Assembly (NCBI RefSeq): GCF_030812295.1
Contig: NZ_JAUSSK010000005.1
Span: forward strand, 372,001-436,000
Direction of reading: 5' to 3'
Length of the DNA stretch: 64,000 nucleotides
DNA from: Luteibacter jiangsuensis
Lineage (GTDB): Bacteria > Pseudomonadota > Gammaproteobacteria > Xanthomonadales > Rhodanobacteraceae
Shown one piece after another: positions 9,469 through 61,917 of the stretch (the first letter of the stretch is position 1; the number at the start of each line of letters is the position of its first letter). Under the pieces are notes generated by a model. The model saw only the letters and a list, made by a program, of their open reading frames with translations. It was not told the DNA's origin and made no database searches. The position numbers and the translations under genes were made by a program.

Positions 9469-9488
9469 AATGCGAATCGTTCGCAATT
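9469..9488. promoter_or_regulatory. Fur-box-like palindrome upstream of the PepSY/ApbE operon
   Basis: AATGCGAATCGTTCGCAATT is a near-perfect dyad (core GCGAA-TCG-TTCGC) resembling the Fur/heme-type operators of Pseudomonas and Xanthomonas. It lies about 52 bp upstream of the PepSY start and 100 bp upstream of the divergent response-regulator gene. Confidence 0.65.
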
Positions 9489-9588
9489 AGGCCGATTCAG
9501 CCCAAGGTATGAAGGGCCGGGAAAGCGCGGCGAAAGCCTGCCGCGACAGCATGCGCGCAGCCCTCCCCGGAGCGTATCCTTGACCCTC

Positions 9589-10263
9589 ATGCGCATCCTC
9601 CTAGCCGAAGACGACGCCGCCATCGGCGCGGCCGTACGTGCCTCCCTCGAACAGGGCGGCCATGCCGTCGACCACGTCACCGACGGGTCCAGCGCGGACC
9701 ACGCGCTGCGCGACCACGATTACGACCTGCTCGTGCTCGACCTCGGGCTGCCCCTGCTCGACGGCAGCGACGTGCTGGCTCGTGCGCGCAAACGCGGCGC
9801 GAGCCTGCCGGTGCTGGTGGTGACCGCGCGGGAGGGTTTGAAGGAGCGTGTCCGCGTGCTCGACCTCGGCGCCGACGATTACCTGGTGAAACCGTTCGCA
9901 CTGGCCGAATTCGACGCCCGGGTACGCGCCCTGCTCCGCCGGCGCACCAGCAACGGCACGCCGGAATTCCGTATCGGCCGGTTGCGCCTCGACATTCCCG
10001 GGCATCGGGCATGGATCGGCGAATCCGCGCTCGACCTCACCGCTCGTGAATTCGGTCTCATCGAAGCCCTCGCGGCGCGCGCGGACAAGGTCACCAGCCG
10101 CGCGCAGCTCGTCGAGGCGCTGTGCAACTGGGACGAGGACCTGACCGACAACGGCCTGGACATCGCCTTGCATCGCTTGCGCAAGAAACTGCAGGGGTCT
10201 GGCACCAACGTGCGCACGATCCGCGGCCTCGGCTACCTGCTCGAAGAAACCGCGGATGCCTGA
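9589..10263 (+). CDS. OmpR/PhoB-family response regulator (QseB/PmrA-like)
   Basis: This 224-residue regulator has an N-terminal receiver with the acidic pair in LLAEDDAA, phosphoacceptor Asp51 (LVLDLGLPLLDG), a Thr in VVTAR and Lys in DDYLVKPFAL. A C-terminal winged-helix domain follows (LDLTAREFGLIEALA, LDIALHRLRKKL, VRTIRGLGYLLEE). Start ATG 9589 gives the standard receiver N-terminus. The stop overlaps the sensor-kinase start by 8 bp, so the pair is co-translated. The closest named groups are QseB, PmrA and TctD. The genes just downstream (Arn-like transporters and an aminotransferase) make envelope remodelling a plausible output. Confidence 0.92.
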   Translation: MRILLAEDDAAIGAAVRASLEQGGHAVDHVTDGSSADHALRDHDYDLLVLDLGLPLLDGSDVLARARKRGASLPVLVVTAREGLKERVRVLDLGADDYLVKPFALAEFDARVRALLRRRTSNGTPEFRIGRLRLDIPGHRAWIGESALDLTAREFGLIEALAARADKVTSRAQLVEALCNWDEDLTDNGLDIALHRLRKKLQGSGTNVRTIRGLGYLLEETADA

Positions 10264-11686
10264 ACGCCGCTCCGCGGCGCGTCGCCCCGCGCGTCCCAGC
10301 CTGCGCCGGCGCCTGCTCACCTTCCTGCTCGTCCCCGTGCTCGGCGTGCTGGTGCTCGACGCCGTCATCGGCTATTTCGTGGCGCTGGCGTATTCGAACC
10401 GCGTGCATGACGCCGACCTCTCCGACTCCGCCCTTACCTTGTCGGAAATGATCGGCAGCGATGCCCTGCGCGGGGAATTGACCGCGCAGGCACGCTTCCT
10501 GCTCGAATATGATCCGGACGGGCGCAACTACTATGCCGTGGTCAGCGATCGCCACGGCCGGATGATCGGCAACGCGGAACTGGAGGGGCCCGGTGCCGCC
10601 GTGGTGACCGACGCGGCACCGAAGCTGTACGACACGGCGCTCGGTCATCGCCCCCTGCGCGCGGCGATCATGCGCGTACCGAACCACCAGGACCCGGGTG
10701 ACGTCCTCACGATCACCGTGGCCGAAAACCTGCGCGATCGCCATACCCGGGCACGCGAAATCCTTTTCCTCACTCTGCCGATGCAGGCGCTGCTGATCGT
10801 CGCCGTGTTGTCCCTGGTCTGGTTCGGGGTTCGCCACGGCCTGGGCGTGCTGGAACCGCTCACGGCGCGGCTGGGCAAGCGCGGCCACGACCTGGGCCCC
10901 ATCGGCGAGGAAGACGTCCCCGTGGAGATCCTGCCGCTCACCCGCACCATCGACGACCTCTTCGCCCGCATGCGCAACATGCTCGGCCTGCAAGAGCGTT
11001 TCATCGCCGATGCGGCGCACCAGCTACGCACGCCACTGGCTGGCATCCAGTTGCATGTCGAACGGTTGGAAGCCACGAACGATCCGGTACAGCGCGTGGA
11101 CGCGCTCGGCCACGTGCACCGTCTCGCGGCGCGCGCGGCACGCACGTCGGCACAGTTGCTCGCGCTCACCCGCACGCAGTCGCCCGACCTCCCCGACCAC
11201 GACGGCATGGCCATCGTCGACCTCGCCAGCGTGGTGCCCGAGGCCGTGGCCATGCGTGTGCACCAGGCCCTCACCCTGGGCGTCGACCTCGGCTATGAAG
11301 GTGACGACACCCCCTGCCTCGTTCGCGCCGACGCGCTGCAGGTGCAGGAGGTGATCGACAACCTTGTCGACAACGCCTTCCACTACGCCGGACGCGGCCA
11401 CGCCGTGACGGTGTCCTTGCGCCACGACGAGGGGGAAGTGGTCCTGGCCGTCGAGGACGATGGCCCCGGGGTGGACGATGCCTTTCTCGACCAGCTGGGT
11501 GAACGTTTTTTTCGCGTTCCGGGGGGCGACGAGGACGGTACCGGCCTGGGCCTGGCCATCGTCGAGAGCATCGCCGAGCGGCACGCGGCGCGCGTGGCTT
11601 TCCTCCACGCGGCATCGGGGGGTTTGCGCGTCGAACTGCATTTTCCTGCGGTCGCTTCCGGAAAGCCCGCTGAAACCACCTCCTGA
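10256..11686 (+). CDS. Sensor histidine kinase (QseC/PmrB/TctE-like)
   Basis: This is a 476-residue inner-membrane kinase. A first membrane segment (LLTFLLVPVLGVLVLDAVIGYF) is followed by a periplasmic region of about 130 residues and a second segment (LLIVAVLSLVWFGV), then a HAMP-like stretch, the H-box FIADAAHQLRTPLAGIQ, the N-box EVIDNLVDNAFHYA and ATP-binding glycine motifs (VEDDGPGVDD, GTGLGLAIV). The HQLRTP variant and the short periplasmic domain fit the QseC/TctE subfamily. It overlaps the response-regulator gene by 8 bp and is therefore its cognate kinase. The sensed signal is not evident. Confidence 0.93.
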   Translation: MPERRSAARRPARPSLRRRLLTFLLVPVLGVLVLDAVIGYFVALAYSNRVHDADLSDSALTLSEMIGSDALRGELTAQARFLLEYDPDGRNYYAVVSDRHGRMIGNAELEGPGAAVVTDAAPKLYDTALGHRPLRAAIMRVPNHQDPGDVLTITVAENLRDRHTRAREILFLTLPMQALLIVAVLSLVWFGVRHGLGVLEPLTARLGKRGHDLGPIGEEDVPVEILPLTRTIDDLFARMRNMLGLQERFIADAAHQLRTPLAGIQLHVERLEATNDPVQRVDALGHVHRLAARAARTSAQLLALTRTQSPDLPDHDGMAIVDLASVVPEAVAMRVHQALTLGVDLGYEGDDTPCLVRADALQVQEVIDNLVDNAFHYAGRGHAVTVSLRHDEGEVVLAVEDDGPGVDDAFLDQLGERFFRVPGGDEDGTGLGLAIVESIAERHAARVAFLHAASGGLRVELHFPAVASGKPAETTS

Positions 11687-11724
11687 GACCATTCGCCCAT
11701 CGTAGGCAGGACGCGAGGCGTCGG

Positions 11725-12561
11725 GTGAACCATTCCGCGGAATTCCAGTTCGAAGGCGGACGTGACGGCGTATTGCTGATCCACGGGCTGACCGGTACGC
11801 CTACCGAGATGCGCATGGTCGGCAAGGGCCTCAACCGCGCCGGCTTTACCGTCGTGGGCGTACAGCTGGCAGGCCACTGCGGCAGCGAGGACGACCTGCT
11901 CGCCACCACCTGGGAAGACTGGTACGCGAGTGTCGAAGCCGCCGCCAACGACCTGCGCGGGCGGGTCGACCGCGTGTTCGTGGCCGGATTGTCGATGGGA
12001 GCCCTGCTCGCCCTGCGGCTCGCCGCCGTACGGCCCGGCTGGATCGACGGCGTCGGCGTGTACGGTGCGACCTTCCGTTACGACGGCTGGTCGATCGGCT
12101 GGACGGGGCGGTTGTCGTTCCTGCTACCGATCTTCAAGCGTCTCGGTATCGGCCGCCAGCGCAGCTTCATCGAGCAGCCGCCCTATGGCATCCGCGACGA
12201 GCGCCTGCGCGCCCAGGTGAGCGCGGCGATGTTCGCCGGCGACAGCGAGGCAGCCGGCTTGCCCGGCAATCCATGGCATGCGCTGGCCGAGATGGTGAAG
12301 CTATCGCGCGACGTGCGCCGGCGCCTGCCGGACGTGCTCGCTCCGTGCTTCATCGCCCATGCGGCGGACGACGACGTCGCCAGCGTCGCCAACGCCGACC
12401 TGGTGGCGCGCAGGGTGCGTGGACCGATCGAAATGCTGCTGCTCGCGGACAGCTACCACATGATCACGATCGACCGCGAACGGCGCACACTGATCGAACG
12501 CAGCGCCGACTTCTTCGGACGCATCGCGCGCGACGCGCGCCCCGTGCGCATCGCGGCCTGA
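11725..12561 (+). CDS. Alpha/beta-hydrolase (carboxylesterase-like)
   Basis: This 278-residue hydrolase has the oxyanion segment VLLIHGLTGTPTEM, the nucleophile elbow GLSMGALLAL, an acid in AHAADDDVASV and a His in DSYHMITIDRER. The order and length match monoacylglycerol lipase/carboxylesterase-like proteins. There is no signal peptide, so it is cytoplasmic. Translation starts at a GTG at 11725, 39 bp after the kinase stop. The next gene, a small transporter, begins 2 bp after its stop, which marks it as the first gene of a four-gene unit with two SMR/EamA-like proteins and a DegT-type aminotransferase. The substrate is unknown; a lipid or acylated intermediate fits the neighbours. Confidence 0.85.
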   Translation: MNHSAEFQFEGGRDGVLLIHGLTGTPTEMRMVGKGLNRAGFTVVGVQLAGHCGSEDDLLATTWEDWYASVEAAANDLRGRVDRVFVAGLSMGALLALRLAAVRPGWIDGVGVYGATFRYDGWSIGWTGRLSFLLPIFKRLGIGRQRSFIEQPPYGIRDERLRAQVSAAMFAGDSEAAGLPGNPWHALAEMVKLSRDVRRRLPDVLAPCFIAHAADDDVASVANADLVARRVRGPIEMLLLADSYHMITIDRERRTLIERSADFFGRIARDARPVRIAA

Positions 12562-12563
12562 TC

Positions 12564-12923
12564 GTGCACGGCCTCGTCCTCATCCTGTGGCTGGCCAACG
12601 TGCTGCTCGATACCAGCGGCCAGCTGGCCTTCAAGGCGGCCGCCGGAGACGACCGCGCGGGCGATGGTCTCGCCCGTTGGCGCTATATGTTCGCGCGGCC
12701 CTGGATATGGGCCGGCATCGGTTGCTACGTAGCCGAGTTCGTCGTCTGGATCGCGTTTCTCTCGTTGGTGCCGTTGTCCGAAGGTGTCCTGCTGGGATCG
12801 ATCAACATCGTCGCGATCATGATCGCCGGCCGCTTCCTGTTCAGCGAGCGCCTGAGCCCCCTGCGGGTGACCGGCATTCTGCTGGTAGCGGCCGGTGTCG
12901 CCATCGTCGGAGCGGGCGCATGA
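12564..12923 (+). CDS. Small EamA/SMR-type membrane protein (ArnE/ArnF-like subunit)
   Basis: This 119-residue protein has four predicted membrane helices (LVLILWLANVLLDTSGQLAF; WIWAGIGCYVAEFVVWIAFL; GVLLGSINIVAIMIAGRFLF; VTGILLVAAGVAIVGAG), the size and topology of a single SMR/EamA half-unit. The GTG start at 12564 is 2 bp after the hydrolase stop. It overlaps the following gene, a second four-helix protein, by 4 bp (ATGA). Two such genes in a row resemble the ArnE/ArnF pair, which flips undecaprenyl-phosphate-aminoarabinose, but the sequence alone cannot fix the substrate. A flippase for an amino-sugar or amino-lipid precursor is the working guess. Confidence 0.75.
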   Translation: MHGLVLILWLANVLLDTSGQLAFKAAAGDDRAGDGLARWRYMFARPWIWAGIGCYVAEFVVWIAFLSLVPLSEGVLLGSINIVAIMIAGRFLFSERLSPLRVTGILLVAAGVAIVGAGA

Positions 12924-13318
12924 AACGCTTCTATGCCGTCGGCTTCGCGCTGTTGCTGGCGTTCGACACATTGAACCTGATCTGCTTCAAGCTGGCCGGC
13001 ACGGAGGCATTGCCCGTGGCGATGGATATCGCATGGCTGCTGCGGGTGTTCTCGCATCCGTGGATCTACGGCGCCGTCGTCGGTTACATCGGCGCGTTCG
13101 TGACCTGGATGAGCCTGCTGAAGCACGCGCCGATCGGCCCCGCCTTCGCCGCCTCGCACCTGGAGGTGATCAGCGTGATGCTGCTGTCCTGGTGGATGTT
13201 CTCCGAACCGGTAACGGCCACTCAGATAGCCGGTGCGCTCGCGATCGTCGCGGGCATCGTCTGTCTCGCCTTTGCCGAGAGCAGGGAGGAGACGGCTGCC
13301 GATGCCGTTCCGGCCTGA
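12920..13318 (+). CDS. Second small EamA/SMR-type membrane protein (ArnE/ArnF-like partner)
   Basis: This is a 132-residue, four-helix protein (AVGFALLLAFDTLNLICFKL; HPWIYGAVVGYIGAFVTWMSLL; AASHLEVISVMLLSWWMF; IAGALAIVAGIVCLAFA) with a short hydrophilic C-terminal tail. It begins inside the end of the previous transporter gene and its end overlaps the aminotransferase start by 17 bp, so all three are tightly coupled. It differs in sequence from its partner, as expected for a heterodimeric SMR-type transporter. The SHLEVISVMLLSWWMFSEPVT segment matches the typical fourth-helix region of the EamA/SMR fold. Substrate is unknown. Confidence 0.75.
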   Translation: MKRFYAVGFALLLAFDTLNLICFKLAGTEALPVAMDIAWLLRVFSHPWIYGAVVGYIGAFVTWMSLLKHAPIGPAFAASHLEVISVMLLSWWMFSEPVTATQIAGALAIVAGIVCLAFAESREETAADAVPA

Positions 13319-14513
13319 ACGCGAATCGCCACCGACGGCAGGCATGCCGTTGGGCCTGGCCGACCTGGGCGGCACCGCTCCCGCTCCGCTGACGGCGCTC
13401 GCCGCCGTCTGGCTCGGTGTCGACGACGTGCAGCTCGAATGTTCGGGTACGGCGGCGCTAACGGTGGCATTGACCGCATTGGCCGAAGACGCGCCTTTCC
13501 GGCGCGAGGTGGCGATCCCGGCCTTCACCTGCCCGCTGGTGCCGCTGGCGATACGCCGGGCGGGTCTGGTGCCTCGACTCGTCGATCTCGCGCCTGGCCA
13601 TTTCGACATGGACCCGCAACGCCTCACCGATGCATGCGGGCCGGCCACGCTCGCCGTCGTGCCGACGCACCTCGGCGGCCGCATTGCCGACGTGGCCGCG
13701 GCGAACGCCATCGCGCACCGCGTCGGCGCCGTCACCATCGAGGACGCCGCCCAGGCACTCGGCGCGCGATGCGAAGGCGGCTTTGCAGGCACGCGCGGCG
13801 ATATCGGCTTCTACAGCCTCGCCGCGGGCAAGGGTTTGTCGATCTTCGAAGGCGGCCTGTTGGTGAGCCGCGACGAAACATGGCATCCACGGTTTCGCCG
13901 GGCGGCGAAGCGCATCGCGCGCTGGCAGCCGGGATGGGAACTGCGACGGTCGCTGGAACTGGCGGCATATGCGTTGCTTTATCGACCGCACGGCCTGGGT
14001 TGGGCCTATGGGCGTCCGCTGCGTCGCGCACTGCGCCGCGGTGACCTGCTCGGCGCGGCGGGCGAACATTTCTCCGTCGATTTTCCGTTGCACCCGGTCG
14101 GGCGCTGGCGACGCGCCGTCGGCGCACGGGCGTTCCACCGTCTGCCAGCCTTCATCGAGGCGACATCCCGGCAAGCGCGCTCGCGCCTGCCGCGGTTGGC
14201 CGCCATTCCGGGGCTGCATGCGTTCTCGGACGAAGGTGGCACCTGGCCTTACCTGATGCTGCGCCTGCCCGACCAGGCGACCCGCGATGCCGTGCTCAAG
14301 CGGCTCTGGCCCTCGCGACATGGCGTATCACGCATGTTCGTGCACGCGTTGCCGGACTATCGCTACCTCGACCCGATGCCGGGCGGCGAAGACGTTCCCC
14401 ACGCTCGCGACTTCGCGGCGCGCACGCTGACCATCACCAACAGCCCGTGGCTCGACGACGCGGCATTCGAACATGTATGCGCCGTGATCGAGGCGGTGAT
14501 CGCTTCGCGCTAG
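13302..14513 (+). CDS. DegT/DnrJ/EryC1/StrS-family PLP aminotransferase (ArnB-like)
   Basis: This 403-residue protein has the sugar-aminotransferase fold. CSGTAALTVALTAL binds the PLP phosphate region, VVPTHLGGRIADV and VTIEDAAQALGA hold the PLP-pyridine Asp, and Lys177 in SLAAGKGLSIFEGG is the probable Schiff-base lysine. These enzymes typically transaminate nucleotide-linked ketosugars, as ArnB does. ATG 13302 is used because it gives a compact N-terminus; it lies within the last codons of the preceding transporter gene. It ends the four-gene unit and converges with tsaB. No other Arn pathway gene is nearby, so the product may be a different amino sugar or amino-modified lipid. Confidence 0.83.
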   Translation: MPFRPERESPPTAGMPLGLADLGGTAPAPLTALAAVWLGVDDVQLECSGTAALTVALTALAEDAPFRREVAIPAFTCPLVPLAIRRAGLVPRLVDLAPGHFDMDPQRLTDACGPATLAVVPTHLGGRIADVAAANAIAHRVGAVTIEDAAQALGARCEGGFAGTRGDIGFYSLAAGKGLSIFEGGLLVSRDETWHPRFRRAAKRIARWQPGWELRRSLELAAYALLYRPHGLGWAYGRPLRRALRRGDLLGAAGEHFSVDFPLHPVGRWRRAVGARAFHRLPAFIEATSRQARSRLPRLAAIPGLHAFSDEGGTWPYLMLRLPDQATRDAVLKRLWPSRHGVSRMFVHALPDYRYLDPMPGGEDVPHARDFAARTLTITNSPWLDDAAFEHVCAVIEAVIASR

Positions 14514-54085: not shown

Positions 54086-54961
54086 CTAGAGGGTCGCCAG
54101 GAACGCCTCGAGCACCGCCCCACGGTAGCGCTGTCGATGCAGTAACACCGATAACGTACGCCTCAAGTCGAGGAAAGGCGTCGGCAACATCGCGATCCGC
54201 CCTGCCCGGACGGCGTCGCCCACGGCCACCTCGGGCAGGCAAGCGATGCCCAACCCTGCGATCACCGCCTGCTTGATCGCCTCGGACTGGTCCAGTTCCA
54301 GTACCGTGCTGCCTTCCGGCAATTCCGCCAGGGCCCGCTCGCTCAACGCCCGGGTCGCCGAGCCACGCTCGCGCAGCACCCAACGCTCGCCGGCGAAGTC
54401 CTCCCGGCGCAAGCGCTTCTTTCGTGCCAGCGCATGCTCGGGCCGCGCGCACACCACCAGGCGATCCTCCCGCCAGGGGCGAACCTCGAGCGACGGGTGA
54501 GCCACCGGGCCCTCGACACAGCCGATGTCGAATTCATGATCGAGCACGCCCTGCGCGATTCGCGCGGTATTGGCCACGCCCAGACGCAGCGACACACCCG
54601 GATGCGCGGCCGCGAACCCCCCGAGCAGATCGCCTACCAGGTAGTTGCCGACCGTATTGCTTGCACCGATGCCGATTTCGCCCGCCAGCTCGGTGATCGT
54701 GCCCTGCGCCCGGCGGCCGAATTCCGCATGACGTTCCAACAGCTCACGCGCAAGTGGCAACAGTTCGCGGCCACGGTCGTTGAGGCGCAGGCGCCCCCGC
54801 TCGCGGGCGAACAACGGAAGACCGATCTGCCGTTCCAGTTCGGCCAACGCCATGCTCGCGGCGGGTTGGCTGAGGAACAACCGGTCGGCGGCGACGCGCA
54901 CGCTGCCCGTGGTGGCCACGGCCACGAACACCTCGAGTTGCCGGGGGCTGATGAAATGCAT
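54086..54961 (-). CDS. LysR-family transcriptional regulator
   Basis: This 291-residue regulator has an N-terminal winged-helix domain (SPRQLEVFVAVATTGSVRVAADRLFLSQPAASMALAELERQIGLPLFAR) and a C-terminal substrate-binding domain (EIGIGASNTVGNYLVGDLLGGF to GLGIACLPEVAVGDAVRAGRI). The start at ATG 54961 fits LysR length; the open frame runs further upstream over the intergenic operator. It is divergent from a YeiH-family membrane protein, the same pairing as YeiE/YeiH in enterics, so it probably controls that gene in response to a small anion or sulfur signal. An inverted repeat in the gap is a candidate operator. Confidence 0.92.
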   Translation of the reverse strand: MHFISPRQLEVFVAVATTGSVRVAADRLFLSQPAASMALAELERQIGLPLFARERGRLRLNDRGRELLPLARELLERHAEFGRRAQGTITELAGEIGIGASNTVGNYLVGDLLGGFAAAHPGVSLRLGVANTARIAQGVLDHEFDIGCVEGPVAHPSLEVRPWREDRLVVCARPEHALARKKRLRREDFAGERWVLRERGSATRALSERALAELPEGSTVLELDQSEAIKQAVIAGLGIACLPEVAVGDAVRAGRIAMLPTPFLDLRRTLSVLLHRQRYRGAVLEAFLATL

Positions 54962-54981
54962 CAGTAATACTGATACTTCTA

Positions 54982-55005
54982 ATAAGCTATTTTCAATATG
55001 CTTAT
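54982..55005. promoter_or_regulatory. Inverted repeat in the LysR/YeiH gap
   Basis: ATAAGC, 12 spacer bases and GCTTAT form a palindrome 21 bp upstream of the LysR start and 48 bp upstream of the YeiH start. The T-N11-A-like layout and AT-rich content fit a LysR binding site. A CGGACC/GGTCCG stem follows at 55014-55032. Confidence 0.6.
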
Positions 55006-55053
55006 CGACTTGGCGGACCGAGAATAGGTCCGTCTCCCCGCAAGGATTTTCCC

Positions 55054-56067
55054 GTGTCCGCCATTGCCGCTCCGTCGCCCTCCTCCTCGCGCCTGCCGGG
55101 CATATGCCTCGCCTTCGCCGTGGCCGCCGTTGCCTTCGGCCTGGGGCGAGCCATGCCACTGGTCGGGGGCGCGGTATTCGGTATCGTCCTGGGTATCCTG
55201 GTCCGCCAGTTCGCGTCGCCGTCGACGCGTTTCCTTCCTGGGATCCGCTTCGCGTCGAAGCAGGTACTGCAATGGTCCATCGTCGCCCTCGGTTTCGGCC
55301 TCAGCATCAAGCAGGTCGCCCATACCGGCCTGGAGTCGCTATCGGTCACCCTCGCGACCGTTGCCGCCGCCGGTCTCGCGGCATGGGGGCTCGGCCGCCT
55401 CCTTCGCGTGCATGACACCCTCAAATTGCTGATCGGCGTGGGTACGGCCATCTGCGGCGGCTCGGCCATCGCGGCGGTCGTGCCGATCGTGAAACCGGAC
55501 GAGCACGACACCGCCTTCGCGATCTCGACGATCTTCCTGTTCAATCTCGTCGCCGTGCTGCTGTTTCCCGCGCTCGGCCATTGGATGGGCCTGTCCGACC
55601 TCGGCTTCGGTCTCTGGGCCGGCACGGCGATCAACGACACGTCTTCCGTGGTGGCGGCCGGCTACAGCTACAGCCACGCCGCGGGCGATTACGCGACCAT
55701 CGTGAAGCTGACCCGTGCGACCCTGATCATTCCGATCTGCCTCGTCATCGCCCTGGTCGTGGCCTGGCGCGAGAAGCGCGGCGGCGCCACCGGCTTCAGC
55801 CTCGCCAAGATCTTCCCGTGGTTCATCCTGTGGTTCCTGGTCGCATCGGCGATCCGCACGGCGGGCGTGATTCCCGCGGCCGTGTTACCCGTGATCCACT
55901 TCGCCGCCGAGTGCCTGATCATCGTGGCGCTCACGGCCATCGGCTTGTCCGCCGACCTGCGCCGGATGGCGTCGACCGGACCGCGGCCGATCCTGCTCGG
56001 GCTGGGTGTCTGGGCGGCGGTGGCGTTGACCAGCTTGCTGGTGCAGCACCTTATCGGGCGCTGGTAA
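55054..56067 (+). CDS. YeiH-family putative sulfate/anion exporter
   Basis: This 337-residue protein has about ten membrane helices and matches the UPF0324/YeiH family: LVGGAVFGIVLGILVRQF, the GVGTAICGGSAIAAVVPIVKPDEHDTAFAISTIFLFN signature and WAGTAINDTSSVVAAGYSYSHAAGDYATIVKLTRATLIIP. The family is proposed to export sulfate or related anions; experimental proof is thin. It starts at GTG 55054 after AAGGA. It is controlled in all likelihood by the divergent LysR protein. REP elements follow the stop. Confidence 0.9.
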   Translation: MSAIAAPSPSSSRLPGICLAFAVAAVAFGLGRAMPLVGGAVFGIVLGILVRQFASPSTRFLPGIRFASKQVLQWSIVALGFGLSIKQVAHTGLESLSVTLATVAAAGLAAWGLGRLLRVHDTLKLLIGVGTAICGGSAIAAVVPIVKPDEHDTAFAISTIFLFNLVAVLLFPALGHWMGLSDLGFGLWAGTAINDTSSVVAAGYSYSHAAGDYATIVKLTRATLIIPICLVIALVVAWREKRGGATGFSLAKIFPWFILWFLVASAIRTAGVIPAAVLPVIHFAAECLIIVALTAIGLSADLRRMASTGPRPILLGLGVWAAVALTSLLVQHLIGRW

Positions 56068-56069
56068 AG

Positions 56070-56210
56070 GCATCGCCGACAGGGTCGGCTCCCTCCGGTA
56101 ATGTGGGAGCATCGCCGCTGAAGCGGCTCCCACAACAGCCGCAGACCCGAGAACAGTAAGCGGGCTACCACGGCACGGCAACCAAGGTGGGAGCCGCTTC
56201 AGCGGCGATT
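56070..56210. repeat. Mixed REP cluster: one type 1 end and two type 2 ends
   Basis: An inverted type 1 end (56070-56093), an inverted type 2 end (56110-56132) and a forward type 2 end (56187-56210) occur in one gap between convergent genes. The last one runs over the final codons and the stop codon of the ureohydrolase-like gene at 56199-56201. Confidence 0.83.
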
Positions 56211-57068
56211 GCCCTCTATCAAGGCGAGCAACCGCAGGTTCAACGCATGCTGTTGCGCCTGCCACTCGGAGAGCCTGTGACCGTCTGCCTCGACCTGTCC
56301 ATCCATCGCGCTCAGCCGCCGTTTCCACCAGGACTTGTAGCGATACCTCGAGATCTCTCCGGTGATATCGCTGCCGATGAGCCGGCCGCGAACGGCACCG
56401 ATGATCGCGGCGCCGCCAGCCTCGCTCAGTGTGCCCTGGTCCCAATTCGTCATCGCGACATCGGGAGCGTAGGCATCCTTGTCGATCGACAGGTATACGG
56501 GCTCGCGCCGGGTCCGCTGCGCGTCGACGAAGGCCTCGACCATCGCTTCCGTATCGTCGAACGAACGAAAGGATGCGGCGATCCCGAAGCGGGACGCCCA
56601 GGACACGTCGACACCAGCCGACCAGTAGGTGAGCCTGCCCGCGCGCAACGGCGTCAGGTAGTTCTCCCAGGCATGCTTGCGGCCGATGTCGCCGGATGTG
56701 ATTCCCACGACATGCACGTGGCTGACACGCGGCAACGCGGCCACCCGGCGCACCCACGATCCGCAGTGCACGCCGAATGGGAAGCGCATGTTGTCGGGGT
56801 GGTTATCGATCACCACCACCTGGAAGCGCCAATCGCCGGGAACGCGCTGCACCAGCGGCAGTGTGAGGTGATGGAAATCGCCACTGCCGAGGAACACGGT
56901 GCCATGTTCGCGTGGCAGCGTACCGGCGAGCAGCTGGCCGAAGCGATGAAGCCGGCGCATGGAACAACCGAAGCGGATCGTTTCCTCCCAATCGCGTAGC
57001 GGCAACACGACACGTCCAGCCAAAGGCCCGACGGAATCGTCCAGGTCAAGAACGACGGGCTGCCGCAT
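56199..57068 (-). CDS. Arginase/ureohydrolase-like protein
   Basis: This 289-residue protein resembles the arginase/agmatinase/formiminoglutamase fold. The metal motifs are recognisable but altered: GSGDFHH (61-67) where the family has GGDHS, VIDNHPDN (87-93; Asp88, His90, Asp92) for DAHxD, and LSIDKDAYAPD (193-203; Asp196, Asp198) for SxDxDxxDP. The ligands for a two-metal site are therefore present. It overlaps the acyltransferase gene by 23 bp and is the last gene of a four-gene minus-strand operon. Its final residues N-R-R and stop are encoded by a REP end. The substrate is unknown; a guanidino or amidino compound is possible. Confidence 0.75.
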   Translation of the reverse strand: MRQPVVLDLDDSVGPLAGRVVLPLRDWEETIRFGCSMRRLHRFGQLLAGTLPREHGTVFLGSGDFHHLTLPLVQRVPGDWRFQVVVIDNHPDNMRFPFGVHCGSWVRRVAALPRVSHVHVVGITSGDIGRKHAWENYLTPLRAGRLTYWSAGVDVSWASRFGIAASFRSFDDTEAMVEAFVDAQRTRREPVYLSIDKDAYAPDVAMTNWDQGTLSEAGGAAIIGAVRGRLIGSDITGEISRYRYKSWWKRRLSAMDGQVEADGHRLSEWQAQQHALNLRLLALIEGNRR

Positions 57069-58110
57069 CGGGAACCTCCCACTGGCTATCCGGCTCGAAG
57101 CGATGCGCGAAGCGGCGCAGCAACGCGCGCAGCAAGGGGTTACGCACGAACACCGCATGCCGGGTCAGGTGGAAGCGCGCGCCGAGCGAAGCCTTCACGG
57201 CAGGGTCGCTCCAACCCGCGACGTAATGGGTCAATCCCCGCGTGAGAGCGTACTCCAGGTTCACGAACCAGCTCACGAAATAGAGATCGAGTTCGCGTGC
57301 CGCCGGGTAGGCGAAACCGACGTACTTGTCGAGCAACTTGCCTTGGTGTTCGTAGCAAAGGTTCCACCCGACCAACCCGCCATCGGCGTGGTAGGACATG
57401 ACGACGCCGCCCGGCTCGCGCAGCGCGGCGGCGAAGAAATCGCGGGAGAGTTTGTCGAAGTGGACTTCGCTCTGTGCGTATACGTTCTCGAAGAGTGCGT
57501 AATACGCGTCCACGCTGGCATCGGCCGCGAAAGCCGCGCCGGTGGGGGTCACCGATACGGCCAGCCGGCCGCGCGAACGGAGTTTGCGGCGCAGGTTCTT
57601 CCTTCGCGACGATGACAGGCGACCGAGGTACTCCTCGATCGACACGAAATCGATCGGCACGTAGGCGAGCGCCTGGCCTTCGACGATCAGGTACCCACGC
57701 TCGCGCGCGGCATCGGCGAAGCGGGCGGTCCATGCCCGGTCGGCGACGGCGGTCAACGGCGAATCGAGGGCGAGATCCTTGACCACCAGCAACGGGTGCG
57801 CGCGACCCGGCCCATGCGCCAAGGCCTCCGCGACGGCGACGGGATCGCTATCCCTGGCGAACAGGGAATACTCGGAAACGGTGGTTCCGGCGAAGCACGT
57901 CCTGGGGGTCAGCAACCGCTTCAGCAACCGCTGGAAGGGCAAGGCCGCCACGCGTCGCCGCAAGGCGTCGTCGGCGGTGGTGAGCAGGTCGAACGGCGCC
58001 ACGAAAAGTGGCGCGCCATCCGCCGCACGGACAGGGGTGAAGCCGTGCGGCGGATGACGCTCGAAGTGCCCGAGCAATGCATCCGGCTCGAGCTGGTTCA
58101 CGAACGCCAT
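57046..58110 (-). CDS. GNAT/FemAB-like acyltransferase
   Basis: This 354-residue protein resembles the acetyltransf_6/FemAB-like group. The C-terminal half has a GNAT-type layout (FEEYLG-like SIEEYLGRLSSSRRKNLRRKLR, then HFDKLSRDFFAAALREPGGVVMSYHADGGLVGWNLCYEHQGKLLDKYVGF and YFVSWFVNLEYALTRGLTHYVAGWSDPAVKASLG). These enzymes acylate amines or peptidoglycan precursors using acyl-CoA or aminoacyl-tRNA. ATG 58110 is 16 bp after the aminotransferase stop. In this operon it would plausibly acylate an amine made by the aminotransferase. Confidence 0.75.
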   Translation of the reverse strand: MAFVNQLEPDALLGHFERHPPHGFTPVRAADGAPLFVAPFDLLTTADDALRRRVAALPFQRLLKRLLTPRTCFAGTTVSEYSLFARDSDPVAVAEALAHGPGRAHPLLVVKDLALDSPLTAVADRAWTARFADAARERGYLIVEGQALAYVPIDFVSIEEYLGRLSSSRRKNLRRKLRSRGRLAVSVTPTGAAFAADASVDAYYALFENVYAQSEVHFDKLSRDFFAAALREPGGVVMSYHADGGLVGWNLCYEHQGKLLDKYVGFAYPAARELDLYFVSWFVNLEYALTRGLTHYVAGWSDPAVKASLGARFHLTRHAVFVRNPLLRALLRRFAHRFEPDSQWEVPDAAARRS

Positions 58111-58126
58111 GGTTGGCTGCCGGGGA

Positions 58127-59530
58127 TCAGCCGCGCTTGGCCAGCGTGAGGAGCTGGTCGAGCAACGCAATGGCGAGGTCGATTTCGTCGTGGCTGATGT
58201 CGAGCGATGGCGCGAACGTGATCACGTTCTTGTACCAGCCGCCGACATCGAGCACGAGACCGATCTTCTTGCCTTCGTGAGTGAGACCGCCGGCCAGGCC
58301 GATGTCGACCATGCGGTCGAGCAGCGCCTTGTTCGGCGTGAAGCCGTCGTCCGTGCAGATCTCCGCACGCAGCGCCAGGCCGAGGCCGTCGACGTCGCCG
58401 ATTTCCTTGTGACGCTTCTGCAGGTCGCGCAGGCCTTCGAGGAAATGCTTGCCCTTCTCGGCCACGCGCGTGCCGTAGTCCAGCTCGTAACCCATCTTGA
58501 TCACCTCGAGTCCCAGGGCGGTGCCCAGCGGGTTCGAGTTGAAGGTGGAGTGCGTGGAGCCGGGCGGGAACACCGTCGGGTTGATCAGTTCCTCGCGGGC
58601 CCAGATACCCGACAATGGATTGAGCCCGTTGGTGAGCGCCTTGCCGAACACGAGGACATCGGGCGTGACGCCGAAATGCTCGATCGACCACAGCTTCCCG
58701 GTGCGCCAGAAACCCATCTGGATCTCGTCGACCACCATAAGGATGCCGTACTTGTCGAGCACCTTCTTCAGGTCGATGAAGAAGTTCTTCGGCGGGATGA
58801 CATAGCCGCCGGTACCCTGGATCGGCTCGACATAGAAGGCGGCGTATTCGGCCTCGTTGACCTTCGGGTCCCACACGCCGTTGTATTCGGTTTCGAACAG
58901 GCGCTCGAACTGGCGCACGCAGGCATCGGAATACTCTTCCGCCGTCATGCCCTTCGGGCGACGGAACGGATACGGGAACGGGATGAACATCGCGCGCTCG
59001 CCGAAGTGGCCGAAGCGGCGGCGATAACGGTAGCTGGACGTGATGGCCGACGCACCGAGGGTGCGGCCGTGGTAACCACCTTCGAACGCGAACATCAGGC
59101 TCTTGCCACCGCGCGCGTTGCGCACGAGCTTGAGCGAATCCTCCACCGCCTGCGCGCCGCCGACATTGAAATGCACGCGGCCATCGAGGCCGAATTTCTG
59201 TTTCGCATCGACCGCGATGGTCTTCGCCAGTTCGATCTTGCCTTGGTGAAGGTACTGGCTGGCGACCTGCGGCAGCAGGTCGATCTGCGCCTTCAGGGTA
59301 TCGTTCAGACGCTTGTTGCCATAGCCGAAGTTGACCGCCGAATACCACATCTGCAGGTCGAGGAACGGGATGTTCTCGCTGTCGTAGATGTAGCTTCCTT
59401 CGGCGTGGCGGAAGATCTTCGGCGGATCGACGTAGTGCACGGTATCGCCGAAGGAGCAGTACTTCGCCTCGTCGGCGAGCAAGGCCGCATCGTCGATGAC
59501 GAGGGGCGCGTTCTTGGTGAGGATGTTCAT
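58127..59530 (-). CDS. Class III PLP-dependent aminotransferase
   Basis: This 467-residue enzyme has the class III (omega/ornithine) signature: FNVGGAQAVEDSLKLVRNARG for PLP-phosphate, FEGGYHGRTLGASAITSSY, MVVDEIQMGFWRTGKLW with the PLP Asp and VFGKALTNGLNPLSG with Schiff-base Lys297. Class III enzymes move amino groups at terminal carbons of omega-amino acids, diamines or keto acids, and some act as decarboxylases or aminomutases. It is longer than ornithine aminotransferase by about 60 residues at the N-terminus. It overlaps the HAD gene by 4 bp. I cannot name the substrate. Confidence 0.88.
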   Translation of the reverse strand: MNILTKNAPLVIDDAALLADEAKYCSFGDTVHYVDPPKIFRHAEGSYIYDSENIPFLDLQMWYSAVNFGYGNKRLNDTLKAQIDLLPQVASQYLHQGKIELAKTIAVDAKQKFGLDGRVHFNVGGAQAVEDSLKLVRNARGGKSLMFAFEGGYHGRTLGASAITSSYRYRRRFGHFGERAMFIPFPYPFRRPKGMTAEEYSDACVRQFERLFETEYNGVWDPKVNEAEYAAFYVEPIQGTGGYVIPPKNFFIDLKKVLDKYGILMVVDEIQMGFWRTGKLWSIEHFGVTPDVLVFGKALTNGLNPLSGIWAREELINPTVFPPGSTHSTFNSNPLGTALGLEVIKMGYELDYGTRVAEKGKHFLEGLRDLQKRHKEIGDVDGLGLALRAEICTDDGFTPNKALLDRMVDIGLAGGLTHEGKKIGLVLDVGGWYKNVITFAPSLDISHDEIDLAIALLDQLLTLAKRG

Positions 59531-60240
59531 GCAGGCAGTTCCTGGGGGTTCGCCGCGGGGAGGGGCATGACGGTTCGCGGTGGCAGGCGTCCGTCGAGAA
59601 GATCGGGAAGGAGTTCGAGCGCCTCATCGAAACTGGCGATGGGTGCGTACGGGATGCCGGCGGCACGGCAATGTTCGATCAGGCGATTCTTCGCGAAGAC
59701 GAAATCGACACGGTCGGCCGCGCAGAAGTCGGAGGCGCCGTCACCGATCAACAGGGTCTTGCCGCCGCGCGCCCGCGCCGCGTCGACACGCGCACACTTG
59801 CAGGTCCCGCTGCGGCATCCCTGCACGCTGTACGGCGAGGTGAGGTTCCACTCGCGCTCACCCACTTGCAGCAGGTGGTTGGCGACCGTCGGCAGGCGCT
59901 GAATACCATGATTGGCCAGGATCGCGTGGATGGCGTGGTCGATGCCGTCGCTCACGATCTCCATCGGAATGCCGTGCTCGACGGTCGCCCTCACGAAGGC
60001 GGCGAAACCGTGGTCGATGCGCAGGCCGCCGAGATGGCGCTGGAGTTCGATGTGGCTCATGTCGAGCAAGGCGACCTGACCCGCCATGCAGACCGCCGAG
60101 CCGATGGTCCCGGCGCGCCAGTCGCGCTCCAGGATCTCCCAGCCGGGCCGCCCGTAGCGGTCCAGCAGCGAGTCGATGACGTCCTCGACGGCGATCGTGC
60201 CGTCGAAGTCACACAGGATGTTCCAGGAGGGGCTGAGCAC
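59527..60240 (-). CDS. HAD-IB phosphatase (MtnX-like)
   Basis: This 237-residue HAD hydrolase has the nucleophile motif ILCDFDGTIA (Asp11, Asp13), motif II near IVSDGIDHAI, and the motif III/IV region LLIGDGASDFCAADRVDFVFAK. It resembles MtnX, the phosphatase that acts on 2-hydroxy-3-keto-5-methylthiopentenyl-1-phosphate in methionine salvage, but no other salvage genes are present. A Cys-rich stretch (GCRSGTCKCARVD) is present in the cap region. Starts at GTG 60240 and is the first gene of the four-gene operon, overlapping the aminotransferase gene by 4 bp. The substrate is likely a phosphorylated intermediate of this unnamed pathway. Confidence 0.85.
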   Translation of the reverse strand: MLSPSWNILCDFDGTIAVEDVIDSLLDRYGRPGWEILERDWRAGTIGSAVCMAGQVALLDMSHIELQRHLGGLRIDHGFAAFVRATVEHGIPMEIVSDGIDHAIHAILANHGIQRLPTVANHLLQVGEREWNLTSPYSVQGCRSGTCKCARVDAARARGGKTLLIGDGASDFCAADRVDFVFAKNRLIEHCRAAGIPYAPIASFDEALELLPDLLDGRLPPRTVMPLPAANPQELPA

Positions 60241-60373
60241 GTGGATGCGCCGTTGACCAGTTTGCAGCGCAGGCTAGTGGTGCATCCTTTCCAAGCCCTT
60301 TCCCCACGTCGAAAGCAATATGTAAGAACCCATGTGGCATGCTTCGGTGCTCATCCGGCTCCGGTTTCCGCGC

Positions 60374-61138
60374 ATGTGCCGTTCGCGCCTCGTTTTCCCC
60401 ATCCTTCTCCTGCTGGCCGCGACCGCCCAGGCCAGCGACGACGACACCCCCAGCTATGCCTTCGGCGCAGGCATGCAGCGGATGCCCGCGTGGCAGGGTT
60501 CGAAGGACCGGCGCGACCAGGCCATCCCCTACGTGGACATCGACCTGCCCGGCAAGGGCGAGCTATCCACCGCCGACGGCCTCACCATCGACCTCATCTC
60601 CGGCGAGCACTGGCACGGCGGCGTCTACGGCAACTGGTTGTGGGGCCGCACGCGTGGCGACCTCGGGCAACTTGGCGGCAAGGTCGCCTCGCTGTCGCCG
60701 CGTTTCCAGGGCGGCGGCTACCTGGAGTACGCCTTCGACAAACGCTTCAGCGTGGGGGGGCACGTCGCCCACGACACCAACGGCGCGGGTGCCTATGCGG
60801 CGCTGTACGCCGACTATCGATTGCCAGACGTGTGGTATATCCAGCATTCGATCGAACTGCAGGTCGAGGGCATGAATGGCCCGGCGATGCGGCGCTTCTA
60901 CGGTGTCACCCCTGGTGAGGCAGCCACCCTGGGCACCCAGGCATGGCACCCCGGGGCGGGCTGGCAATCAGCGAACCTGGAATACGACGCCTTCATTCCC
61001 ACCTCGCGGCATACCGGCTTCGCCCTGGCCGTTTCGTACGGACGGCTATATGGGAATGCCGCGCAGAGTCCGCTGGTCCGCCAGTTCGGCTCGACCCGGC
61101 AGGTGACGGAAACCCTCGCCTTCGTCTATCACTTCTAG
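60374..61138 (+). CDS. MipA/OmpV-family outer-membrane protein
   Basis: This 254-residue protein has a signal peptide (RLVFPILLLLAATAQAS) and a beta-barrel sequence with alternating residues, beginning SYAFGAGMQRMPAWQGSKDRRDQAIPYVDIDLPGK and ending in Phe (TLAFVYHF), the usual C-terminus for BAM-assembled outer-membrane proteins. It fits the MipA/OmpV family, implicated in peptidoglycan-enzyme scaffolding or solute passage. ATG 60374 is preferred over an upstream ATG at 60332 because it gives the signal peptide. Its stop overlaps the convergent CPBP gene by 4 bp. The 133-bp gap upstream shows no distinct signal. Confidence 0.87.
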   Translation: MCRSRLVFPILLLLAATAQASDDDTPSYAFGAGMQRMPAWQGSKDRRDQAIPYVDIDLPGKGELSTADGLTIDLISGEHWHGGVYGNWLWGRTRGDLGQLGGKVASLSPRFQGGGYLEYAFDKRFSVGGHVAHDTNGAGAYAALYADYRLPDVWYIQHSIELQVEGMNGPAMRRFYGVTPGEAATLGTQAWHPGAGWQSANLEYDAFIPTSRHTGFALAVSYGRLYGNAAQSPLVRQFGSTRQVTETLAFVYHF

Positions 61139-61917
61139 ACGGCCGGGCCGGCATTGAGTTCGTCGCGTTCCGGCGGCGCCGGAACCGCGAACAGCACGCC
61201 CAGCATCACCAGGTGGGCGGCGGCTGAAAGGAACGGCGACCATGCCTGCGACAGCACCTGGTAGGGAAGGATGTCGCCGATCAATACATTGGCGAGGTTC
61301 CAGCCCCAATGCAGGCCCACCGCCAGCCACAGCGAACCGGTGCGCAGCACCGCCGTGGCATAGGCGAGCCCGAAGCAGAACAACATCACCCATTCCGCAG
61401 GGCCGGCACCGAGCCGGTAGATATGGTTGACCACGTAGAACGTGCTGGATACGAGTACGAAAGCCCACGGCACCCAGCGGATTCGTGCCGCACGGTAGAG
61501 GAATCCACGCGTGAGGATGTCCTCGGCGATGGAGGGCACGAAGGTTGCGACAAGGGCCCATGGAATCGACGAGAGAAAGGAAACGGCAGCTACCCGTGGC
61601 GATTCCGGCGCAAGCGCGGCATAGACGTTGAAGACCATGCCGATGCAGACGGCCACGTACTTGAGAAGCAGTGCCAGCGCGAGCCCGCCGGCCAGCAAGA
61701 CCCCCGCCGACCGGCGCCACTCCAGGGCGTAGGCATCGTAGCCACGAAAGCCGAGCCAGCGTCCGAGCGGCCAGGCGGCCACGACCATGCCCACCATCAG
61801 GCCGGCCTGGACCGTGAAGCTGCCGAGCAACCGCCCGCCGATACCCTCGGCAGCCTGGTACAGAACGAACAGGATCGCGAAGGCGAGTGCCGCGCGCCAT
61901 CGATCGTTCTGCGTCAT
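61135..61917 (-). CDS. CPBP-family intramembrane metalloprotease (variant motif)
   Basis: This 260-residue protein has about eight hydrophobic segments and the CPBP pattern: AEDILTRGFLYRAARI, STFYVVNHIYRLG and GLHWGWNLANVL. The first motif reads E-D-x-x-x-R in place of the usual E-E-x-x-x-R, so metal or catalytic chemistry could be altered; the His motifs are present. It is convergent with the MipA gene, sharing 4 bp at the stops. The only other CPBP protein in the window is at 47038, and they are not close paralogues. No immunity or bacteriocin gene is beside it. Confidence 0.82.
   Translation of the reverse strand: MTQNDRWRAALAFAILFVLYQAAEGIGGRLLGSFTVQAGLMVGMVVAAWPLGRWLGFRGYDAYALEWRRSAGVLLAGGLALALLLKYVAVCIGMVFNVYAALAPESPRVAAVSFLSSIPWALVATFVPSIAEDILTRGFLYRAARIRWVPWAFVLVSSTFYVVNHIYRLGAGPAEWVMLFCFGLAYATAVLRTGSLWLAVGLHWGWNLANVLIGDILPYQVLSQAWSPFLSAAAHLVMLGVLFAVPAPPERDELNAGPAV

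What the first reader, a model, noticed from the sequence alone, without database searches (positions are those of the whole stretch)
56199..60240. Unassigned four-gene pathway: HAD phosphatase, class III aminotransferase, acyltransferase, ureohydrolase-like protein
The genes overlap or nearly touch (4 bp, 16 bp gap, 23 bp overlap), so they act together. The set could dephosphorylate a precursor, aminate it, acylate the amine and hydrolyse an amidino group. I know no pathway with this composition. Altered but complete metal motifs in the last protein suggest a new activity.
Basis: inference. Interest (0 to 1): 0.72.

Follow-up and report, generated by a model that had tools for sequence, protein, structure and literature searches.

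The report
Two-part sensor-linked likely lipid gene set
The four genes are half of a larger gene set shared by many bacteria, apparently controlled by one sensor system, that probably builds and flips an amine-bearing lipid; its product has not been identified.

Summary
The four genes are real, at the stated coordinates, with the stated spacings. They are not a self-contained pathway. The rest of the set lies in the same window about 42 kb away (9589-14513 +): a two-component system, an alpha/beta hydrolase, a pair of small SMR/EamA transporters and a DegT-type PLP enzyme. In Stenotrophomonas the eight enzyme/transporter genes are contiguous. The ureohydrolase-like and DegT genes occur in the same 32 of 61 related genomes. 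One clade lacks DegT, acyltransferase and ureohydrolase together, at two places. Both halves carry a similar 11-bp-period direct repeat about 50 bp upstream. Elsewhere the set gains acyl-carrier/ketosynthase, desaturase, cyclopropane-synthase, ABC-exporter or EptA/DgkA genes. The ureohydrolase-like protein keeps the six expected metal ligands but has an invariant glycine where arginases bind guanidine with Glu, so amidino hydrolysis is not supported. Best reading: a sensor-controlled pathway that makes, N-acylates and flips an amine-bearing envelope lipid. Product and enzyme activities are inferred. Ten literature searches found no description.

The parts
59527..60240 (-). HAD-IB phosphatase (MtnX-like subfamily)
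   Evidence: TIGR01489 84.4 bits vs cut-off 81.55; MtnX equivalog 77 vs 303 not met; nearest solved 2fea
58127..59530 (-). Class III PLP aminotransferase; Glu and Arg of the usual substrate gate both replaced by Thr
   Evidence: Glu to Thr 85 of 85, Arg to Thr 84 of 85 with one unread, of the distinct sequences that hold the motif VEPIQGxGG
57046..58110 (-). FemAB/GNAT-type (N-)acyltransferase
   Evidence: Pfam PF13480, PF04339; no solved relative by sequence profile
56199..57068 (-). Ureohydrolase-superfamily protein, six expected metal ligands kept, guanidine-binding Glu replaced by Gly; overlaps FEM by 23 bp
60287..60303 (-). Putative response-regulator box GGAAAG-N5-GGAAAG, 46 bp upstream of HAD, between HAD and MipA
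60332..61138 (+). MipA/OmpV outer-membrane protein, divergent from HAD; MipA matches in 41 of 80 loci
   Evidence: Pfam MipA 1.1e-25
9520..9536 (+). Same box (GGAAAGCGCGGCGAAAG), 52 bp upstream of the response regulator
9589..10263 (+). OmpR-type response regulator (TctD/PmrA/QseB-like)
10256..11686 (+). Sensor histidine kinase (QseC/PmrB-like, 2CSK_N domain)
11660..11676 (+). Weaker copy of the box (GGAAAGCCCGCTGAAAC), 48 bp upstream of the hydrolase, inside the 3' end of the kinase gene
11725..12561 (+). Alpha/beta hydrolase of the S33 / monoacylglycerol-lipase type (HYD)
   Evidence: ortholog L078:4239-5072 Pfam Hydrolase_4 1e-21
12564..12923 (+). SMR/EamA transporter half 1 with central Asp
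12920..13318 (+). SMR/EamA transporter half 2 with central Asp (read by eye; the pattern did not read this one)
13302..14513 (+). DegT/ArnB-type PLP enzyme
   Evidence: Pfam PF01041 1.1e-37; same 32 of 61 genomes as ARG

Best explanation
The four genes are one of two operons of a single sensor-controlled regulon that makes an amine-bearing, acylated envelope lipid and moves it across the inner membrane. Proposed order (inferred): the class III PLP enzyme installs an amine on a small phosphorylated carbonyl compound that lacks the usual alpha-carboxylate; the HAD-IB phosphatase removes the phosphate to give an amino alcohol; the FemAB-type enzyme N-acylates it, drawing acyl groups from general metabolism (in this strain) or from a dedicated ACP/ketosynthase, desaturase or cyclopropane synthase (in others); the lipase-like hydrolase trims or supplies the acyl chain; the DegT enzyme and the ureohydrolase-fold metalloenzyme tailor the head group by adding or removing nitrogen; the paired SMR transporter, which keeps an acidic residue in both halves, flips the cationic product. 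The PmrA/QseB-like response regulator controls both operons through an 11-bp-period direct repeat. Shown: gene content, conservation, co-occurrence, joint absence, shared repeat, residue changes. Inferred: every chemical step, regulation, and the product.
For: Contiguous HYD-SMR-SMR-DegT-HAD-AT-FEM-ARG in Stenotrophomonas L078, preceded by RR-HK; 15 of 80 loci hold all ten. ARG (E 1e-3) and DegT (E 1e-30) in the identical 32 of 61 genomes; HYD in 35 of 61, i.e. all 34 AT genomes plus G030. Joint absence of DegT and of FEM+ARG at two loci in one clade of the genus. A matrix trained on 10 other HAD upstream sites of the genus ranks the window's HAD, RR and HYD boxes 1st, 2nd and 4th of all positions in 64 kb. 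Acyl-lipid genes join the set elsewhere: KS in 36 and ACP in 34 of 80 loci, KS beside HAD-AT-HYD in L142; desaturase in 4 and CFA synthase in 3 of 7 annotated Rhizobiaceae loci; DevABC-like exporter adaptor in 40 of 80 loci, with permease in 23; TolC-ABC-adaptor genes in A. fabrum 1D132; EptA and DgkA in one Agrobacterium. SMR halves hit the lipid flippases ArnE/ArnF weakly, and a review calls that SMR subtype glycolipid flippases that often have Asn for the central Glu and carry noncationic lipids (PMC9574504, passages); here an acidic residue stands there in 42 of 43 readable halves (38 Asp, 4 Glu, 1 Asn; 9 of 52 rows unread).
Against: No product, expression or enzyme data. No ACP of this type and no DevC (E 1e-60) was found in this genome; KS was not searched genome-wide. 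EptA/DgkA adjoin the set in 1 of 7 annotated Rhizobiaceae loci. The genome-wide box pattern is not rare (10 hits vs 5 for the reversed control; of the other eight, four lie in predicted ORFs and four between ORFs); the HYD box lies in coding sequence; the RR box is missing in G012, Stenotrophomonas and X. maliensis and weak in G006/G010/G020; the HYD box is weak in Rhodanobacter and Stenotrophomonas. The matrix excluded the window, but its seed pattern was chosen after seeing an alignment that included it. HAD-AT-HYD-SMR without FEM/ARG/DegT persists in three genomes, so part of the set has its own function. DegT was not found in the Rhizobium/Agrobacterium and Pseudomonas-like loci read. FemAB/GNAT enzymes can transfer amino acids rather than fatty acyl groups.
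Confidence: 0.5

Rival explanations
1. One reading: a self-contained small-molecule pathway that dephosphorylates, aminates, acylates and finally hydrolyses an amidino (guanidino) group.
For: Tight four-gene operon; Pfam families; metal ligands kept.
Against: The Glu position that binds guanidine in arginases is an invariant Gly, and NW[DE]QG replaces the usual loop. Six more genes travel with the four.
Confidence: 0.08
2. An Arn-like pathway: DegT makes an amino sugar on an undecaprenyl carrier, the SMR pair flips it as ArnE/ArnF do, and it ends on lipid A or another surface glycolipid under a PmrAB-like system.
For: DegT is of the ArnB/WecE/DesI kind, SMR pair weakly ArnE/ArnF-like, PmrA/PmrB-like regulators, EptA/DgkA next to one Agrobacterium copy, an undecaprenyl-diphosphate phosphatase gene near the Roseomonas copy, two glycosyltransferase genes near one A. 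larrymoorei copy.
Against: No glycosyltransferase or nucleotide-sugar gene was seen to recur in the annotated loci (not searched for genome-wide). DegT is lacking in the Rhizobium/Agrobacterium copies read; KS/ACP, desaturase and CFA synthase point to acyl chains.
Confidence: 0.15
3. A secreted small molecule (siderophore- or antibiotic-like acylated amine) exported by the SMR pair and, where present, a DevABC/TolC pump.
For: ACP/KS, acyltransferase, two PLP enzymes and exporters are a natural-product mix.
Against: Most copies stand by a two-component system or MipA, and no NRPS, large PKS or receptor gene was noticed in the loci read (not searched for). Not excluded.
Confidence: 0.17
4. A catabolic or repair pathway that dismantles an amine-containing lipid or peptide met under stress.
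For: Hydrolase, ureohydrolase-fold protein, aminotransferase and phosphatase could all be degradative; HAD-AT-HYD persists without FEM/ARG/DegT.
Against: Acyl-synthesis and acyl-tailoring genes join the set.
Confidence: 0.1

Closest known systems
Arn (4-amino-4-deoxy-L-arabinose) operon with PmrAB control
   Same: DegT-family PLP enzyme, paired small SMR/EamA flippase-like proteins, PmrA/QseB-like two-component system, direct-repeat operator of 6+N5+6 layout (PmrA-box layout recalled, not from a call)
   Different: No ArnA/C/D/T-type gene was noticed in the loci read; class III AT, HAD-IB, FemAB, ureohydrolase and lipase-like genes are not Arn genes; SMR halves mostly keep Asp; the ArnB, ArnE, ArnF, PmrA and PmrB equivalog cut-offs are missed
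Ureohydrolases (arginase, agmatinase, guanidinobutyrase)
   Same: Family and the six metal-ligand positions by profile alignment
   Different: Guanidine-binding Glu is Gly; [HN]CGxW and NW[DE]QG signatures replace the substrate loops
Class III aminotransferases (GABA, ornithine) and archaeal relatives such as 7vno
   Same: PLP lysine, YHGRT arginine
   Different: Gate Glu to Thr (QGTGG) in 85 of 85 and C-terminal Arg to Thr (KNVIT.AP) in 84 of 85 sequences, one unread
MtnX-like HAD-IB phosphatases
   Same: Subfamily TIGR01489 reached
   Different: Not the methionine-salvage enzyme MtnX by score (77 vs 303 bits)
Amine-plus-phosphatase routes to serinol (rhizobitoxine RtxA, N-acyl serinols; recalled)
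   Same: Possible logic: aminate a phosphorylated ketose, dephosphorylate, N-acylate
   Different: No sequence comparison made; literature searches gave nothing on the combination

Membership tests
Arginase/agmatinase (ureohydrolase enzymes) | Six metal ligands: His of GGDH, DAHxD, SxDxD | tested here: met
   GSGD[FY]HH, DNHPD and DKD invariant in 22 of 22; aligned with agmatinase 7lol. Which His of HH is the ligand was not resolved
Arginase/agmatinase (ureohydrolase enzymes) | Guanidine-binding Glu after the DVV strand (residue recalled) | tested here: not met
   Invariant Gly237 at that place in 22 of 22; the profile alignment ends just before it, so the position rests on motif spacing
Arginase/agmatinase (ureohydrolase enzymes) | Predicted structure superposes on arginase | not tested
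   Structure machine busy on all 14 tries (one search was for FEM)
GABA/ornithine-type class III aminotransferase | Glu-Arg substrate gate | tested here: not met
   Glu to Thr 85 of 85, Arg to Thr 84 of 85 (one unread) among distinct sequences that hold VEPIQGxGG; sequences without that motif were not counted; positions from the alignment with one structure, 7vno
GABA/ornithine-type class III aminotransferase | PLP-binding Lys and Aminotran_3 profile | tested here: met
   (GKA[LI]TNG in 84 of 85)
Arn pathway | ArnB, ArnE, ArnF at equivalog level | tested here: not met
   62.1 vs 631 (window DegT); 32.4 vs 92 and 31.6 vs 99 bits (Stenotrophomonas SMR halves)
Arn pathway | ArnT/ArnC/ArnA/ArnD in the same set | tested here: inconclusive
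   None noticed among annotated loci; not searched genome-wide
PmrAB two-component system | Equivalog score | tested here: not met
   RR 194.6 vs 330, HK 131.4 vs 314
MtnX phosphatase | Equivalog score | tested here: not met
   77 vs 303
Lipid-flipping SMR proteins | Paired small halves, lipid transport | not testable with these tools
   Pairing shown; transport needs experiment

The most novel reading that the evidence does not exclude
The set makes a hitherto unknown class of cationic N-acylated amino-alcohol membrane lipid, shared by Xanthomonadales, Burkholderia- and Pseudomonas-like bacteria and Rhizobiaceae plasmids, and presumably switched on by envelope stress; its ureohydrolase-fold enzyme is the first of a subfamily that works on a non-guanidino C-N bond.
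Probability: 0.33. Interest if true: 0.82.

Novelty: new variant of a known kind. Interest (0 to 1): 0.62.

Why it matters
If right, a whole membrane-modification pathway has gone unnamed in well-known soil, plant and opportunistic bacteria and on Rhizobium, Agrobacterium, Bartonella and Xanthomonas plasmids. It would give new substrates for three enzyme families (ureohydrolase, class III PLP, FemAB) and a further lipid role for SMR transporters. It also gives a sharp test: the product should appear or vanish with genes at two places 42 kb apart.

Tried and rejected
Literature: ten full-text searches gave no paper on the set; PMC2629846, PMC5817063, PMC10666787 and PMC8707732 were seen as listings only and not followed. 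PMC9574504 was seen as passages. The claim that nothing is in print covers only these searches of an open-licence library.

Rejected: arginase/agmatinase for the last gene (Gly for Glu); MtnX for the HAD (score); a dedicated ACP in this strain (best own-genome hit to the L019 ACP 33%, E 1.3e-5; the KS was not searched genome-wide); a DevABC exporter in this strain (no DevC at E 1e-60). Other members of the box regulon: of the other 8 of 10 genome matches, 4 lie in predicted ORFs (L167, L168, L169, L174) and 4 between ORFs (L170, L172, L173, L175) at other spacings or orientation, L172 undecided. Sigma-70 and terminator scans of 55900-61300 found nothing above chance. No PDB relative of FEM by profile. 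A first greedy ORF caller mislabelled reverse-strand frames and was replaced. Structure prediction never ran.

One search counts only sequences with its motif; one search left 9 of 52 rows unread.
Full report
The observation. The window lies in a 4.3 Mb genome (G000), by inference a Luteibacter: the closest named AT matches are Luteibacter at up to 96%. The four ORFs, their order, strand and spacings are as reported once FEM is started at 58110 and ARG at 57068. Families are as guessed.

The set is larger. In 80 loci around AT (the best 80 of 576 confirmed), HAD is found in 80 of 80, FEM and ARG together in 54 of 80, KS in 36, ACP in 34, MipA in 41. In Stenotrophomonas (L078) RR-HK-HYD-SMR-SMR-DegT-HAD-AT-FEM-ARG follow each other on one strand. 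In Rhodanobacter (L027) KS-ACP sit between AT and FEM on the other strand, and DegT-SMR-SMR-HYD follow, also on the other strand. In the window the second half is at 9589-14513, about 42 kb from ARG.

Co-occurrence. Among 61 relatives, ARG (E 1e-3) is in 32 and DegT (E 1e-30) in the identical 32 (one DegT is a contig-edge fragment); AT (E 1e-100) is in 34, HYD (E 1e-60) in 35. G006, G010 and G020 have AT and HYD but neither ARG nor DegT; G030 has ARG, DegT and HYD but no AT at that cut-off. In G006/G010/G020 RR-HK-HYD-SMR-SMR are present but DegT is missing, and HAD-AT-MipA are present but FEM-ARG are missing. These three are one clade (86.6-87.9% to each other over HK-HYD, about 79-80% to the others compared), so this is probably a single event (loss, by inference), yet one that touched three genes at two places. 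In 398 genomes of the phylum: ARG 16, AT 25, FEM 23; all 16 ARG genomes have AT and FEM; 21 of 23 FEM genomes have AT. Five of those 21 rest on weak FEM matches on other contigs than AT.

Range and additions. The Bartonella locus read has AT-FEM-ARG only. In the Roseomonas and Aureimonas loci read, a different class III PLP enzyme of the glutamate-semialdehyde aminomutase kind stands beside HAD where AT would be (whether it is an extra copy was not tested); the Azospirillum copy has only distant AT matches (24-30%). Of seven annotated Rhizobiaceae loci viewed, seven have HAD-AT-ARG-SMR ... HYD-FEM-SMR, four a fatty acid desaturase, three a cyclopropane synthase, five MipA, one EptA-DgkA, one a TolC-ABC-adaptor exporter. 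An eighth has no annotation. A DevABC-like exporter adaptor lies by the set in 40 of 80 loci, 23 with the permease, but no DevC was found in this genome. In L142 KS, HAD, AT and HYD lie on one strand, with a small ACP-like ORF before KS (by eye) and about 1 kb unassigned between HAD and AT.

Regulation. An alignment of HAD upstream regions shows a conserved direct repeat, GGAAAG-N5-(G/C)GAAAG. A weight matrix from 10 other sites of the genus ranks the window's HAD site first, the RR upstream site second and the HYD upstream site fourth among all positions of the window; distances to the start codons are 46, 52 and 48 bp. The window was not in the training set, but the seed pattern was picked after seeing an alignment that held it. 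With two mismatches allowed the window has 9 matches against 2.16 expected, none of 100 shuffles reaching 9. The repeat recurs upstream of HAD in Rhodanobacter and Xanthomonas maliensis (22.5 bits each) and weaker in Stenotrophomonas (18.7) and Dyella (17.5). Against: the RR site is missing in G012, Stenotrophomonas and X. maliensis and weak in G006/G010/G020; the HYD site is inside the kinase gene and weak in Rhodanobacter and Stenotrophomonas; no site was found before the two genes tested in the Pseudomonas-like L121; genome-wide the pattern has 10 hits against 5 for the reversed control, four of the other eight lying between ORFs. The regulator pair scores nearest TctD/PmrA/QseB and QseC/PmrB but below their cut-offs. 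In Roseomonas and Aureimonas a kinase with a sigma-54-type regulator sits next to the set instead.

Residues. ARG: GSGD[FY]HH, DNHPD, DKD, NW[DE]QG and D234xxG237 are invariant, apart from the bracketed places, in 22 sequences. The profile matches agmatinase and arginase chains with these motifs in register. Where arginases go on to Glu after the DVV strand, ARG has Gly. AT: Thr replaces the gate Glu (QGTGG) in 85 of 85 and the Arg before the C-terminal Pro (KNVIT.AP) in 84 of 85 sequences (one unread) that hold the search motif, while the YHGRT Arg and, in 84 of 85, the PLP Lys motif remain. This speaks against an ordinary alpha-carboxylate substrate. SMR: at the central Glu position reads Asp in 38, Glu in 4 and Asn in 1 of 43 readable halves (9 of 52 unread); the window's two halves both have Asp. 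Lipid SMRs are described as often having Asn there (PMC9574504, passages).

Mechanism. From this I infer a sensor-controlled pathway for an amine-bearing acylated lipid with its own flippase. A serinol-like head group (aminated DHAP, dephosphorylated) fits AT + HAD-IB but is a guess from recalled pathways. FEM as N-acyltransferase and HYD as acyl hydrolase follow their families. DegT, FEM and ARG behave as a unit in one clade of the genus and may tailor the head group; in the Rhizobiaceae loci read FEM and ARG occur without DegT.

What remains open: product, order of steps, direction (synthesis or breakdown), and the stimulus. No structure could be predicted. Novelty is judged against ten searches of an open-licence library and the family libraries only.

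Noticed in passing
window 9469-9488: A palindrome AATGCGAATCGTTCGCAATT, identical in five other loci of the genus, lies upstream of the response regulator at the start of divergent genes that look PepSY-like by eye; it resembles a Fur box (recalled).
   Followed up: partly
L037:10085-12632 and L132:12469-14996: A DltB/MBOAT O-acyltransferase plus a partner gene lies by the set in Rhodanobacter and on a bat Bartonella plasmid.
   Followed up: no
G030 (L126, L127): One relative has FEM-ARG, DegT-SMR-SMR and HYD at separate places but no AT at E 1e-100, so another enzyme may stand in.
   Followed up: no
L155:6484-7827, L156:6547-7884: A glutamate-1-semialdehyde aminomutase-like enzyme stands beside HAD where AT would be in Roseomonas and Aureimonas plasmids.
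   Followed up: partly
L147-L149, L162-L164: A clade of the genus that lacks DegT, FEM and ARG but keeps the rest: a natural control for lipid comparison.
   Followed up: yes
window 54086-56067: YeiE-like LysR regulator beside a divergent YeiH-family membrane protein, next to but not part of the set.
   Followed up: no
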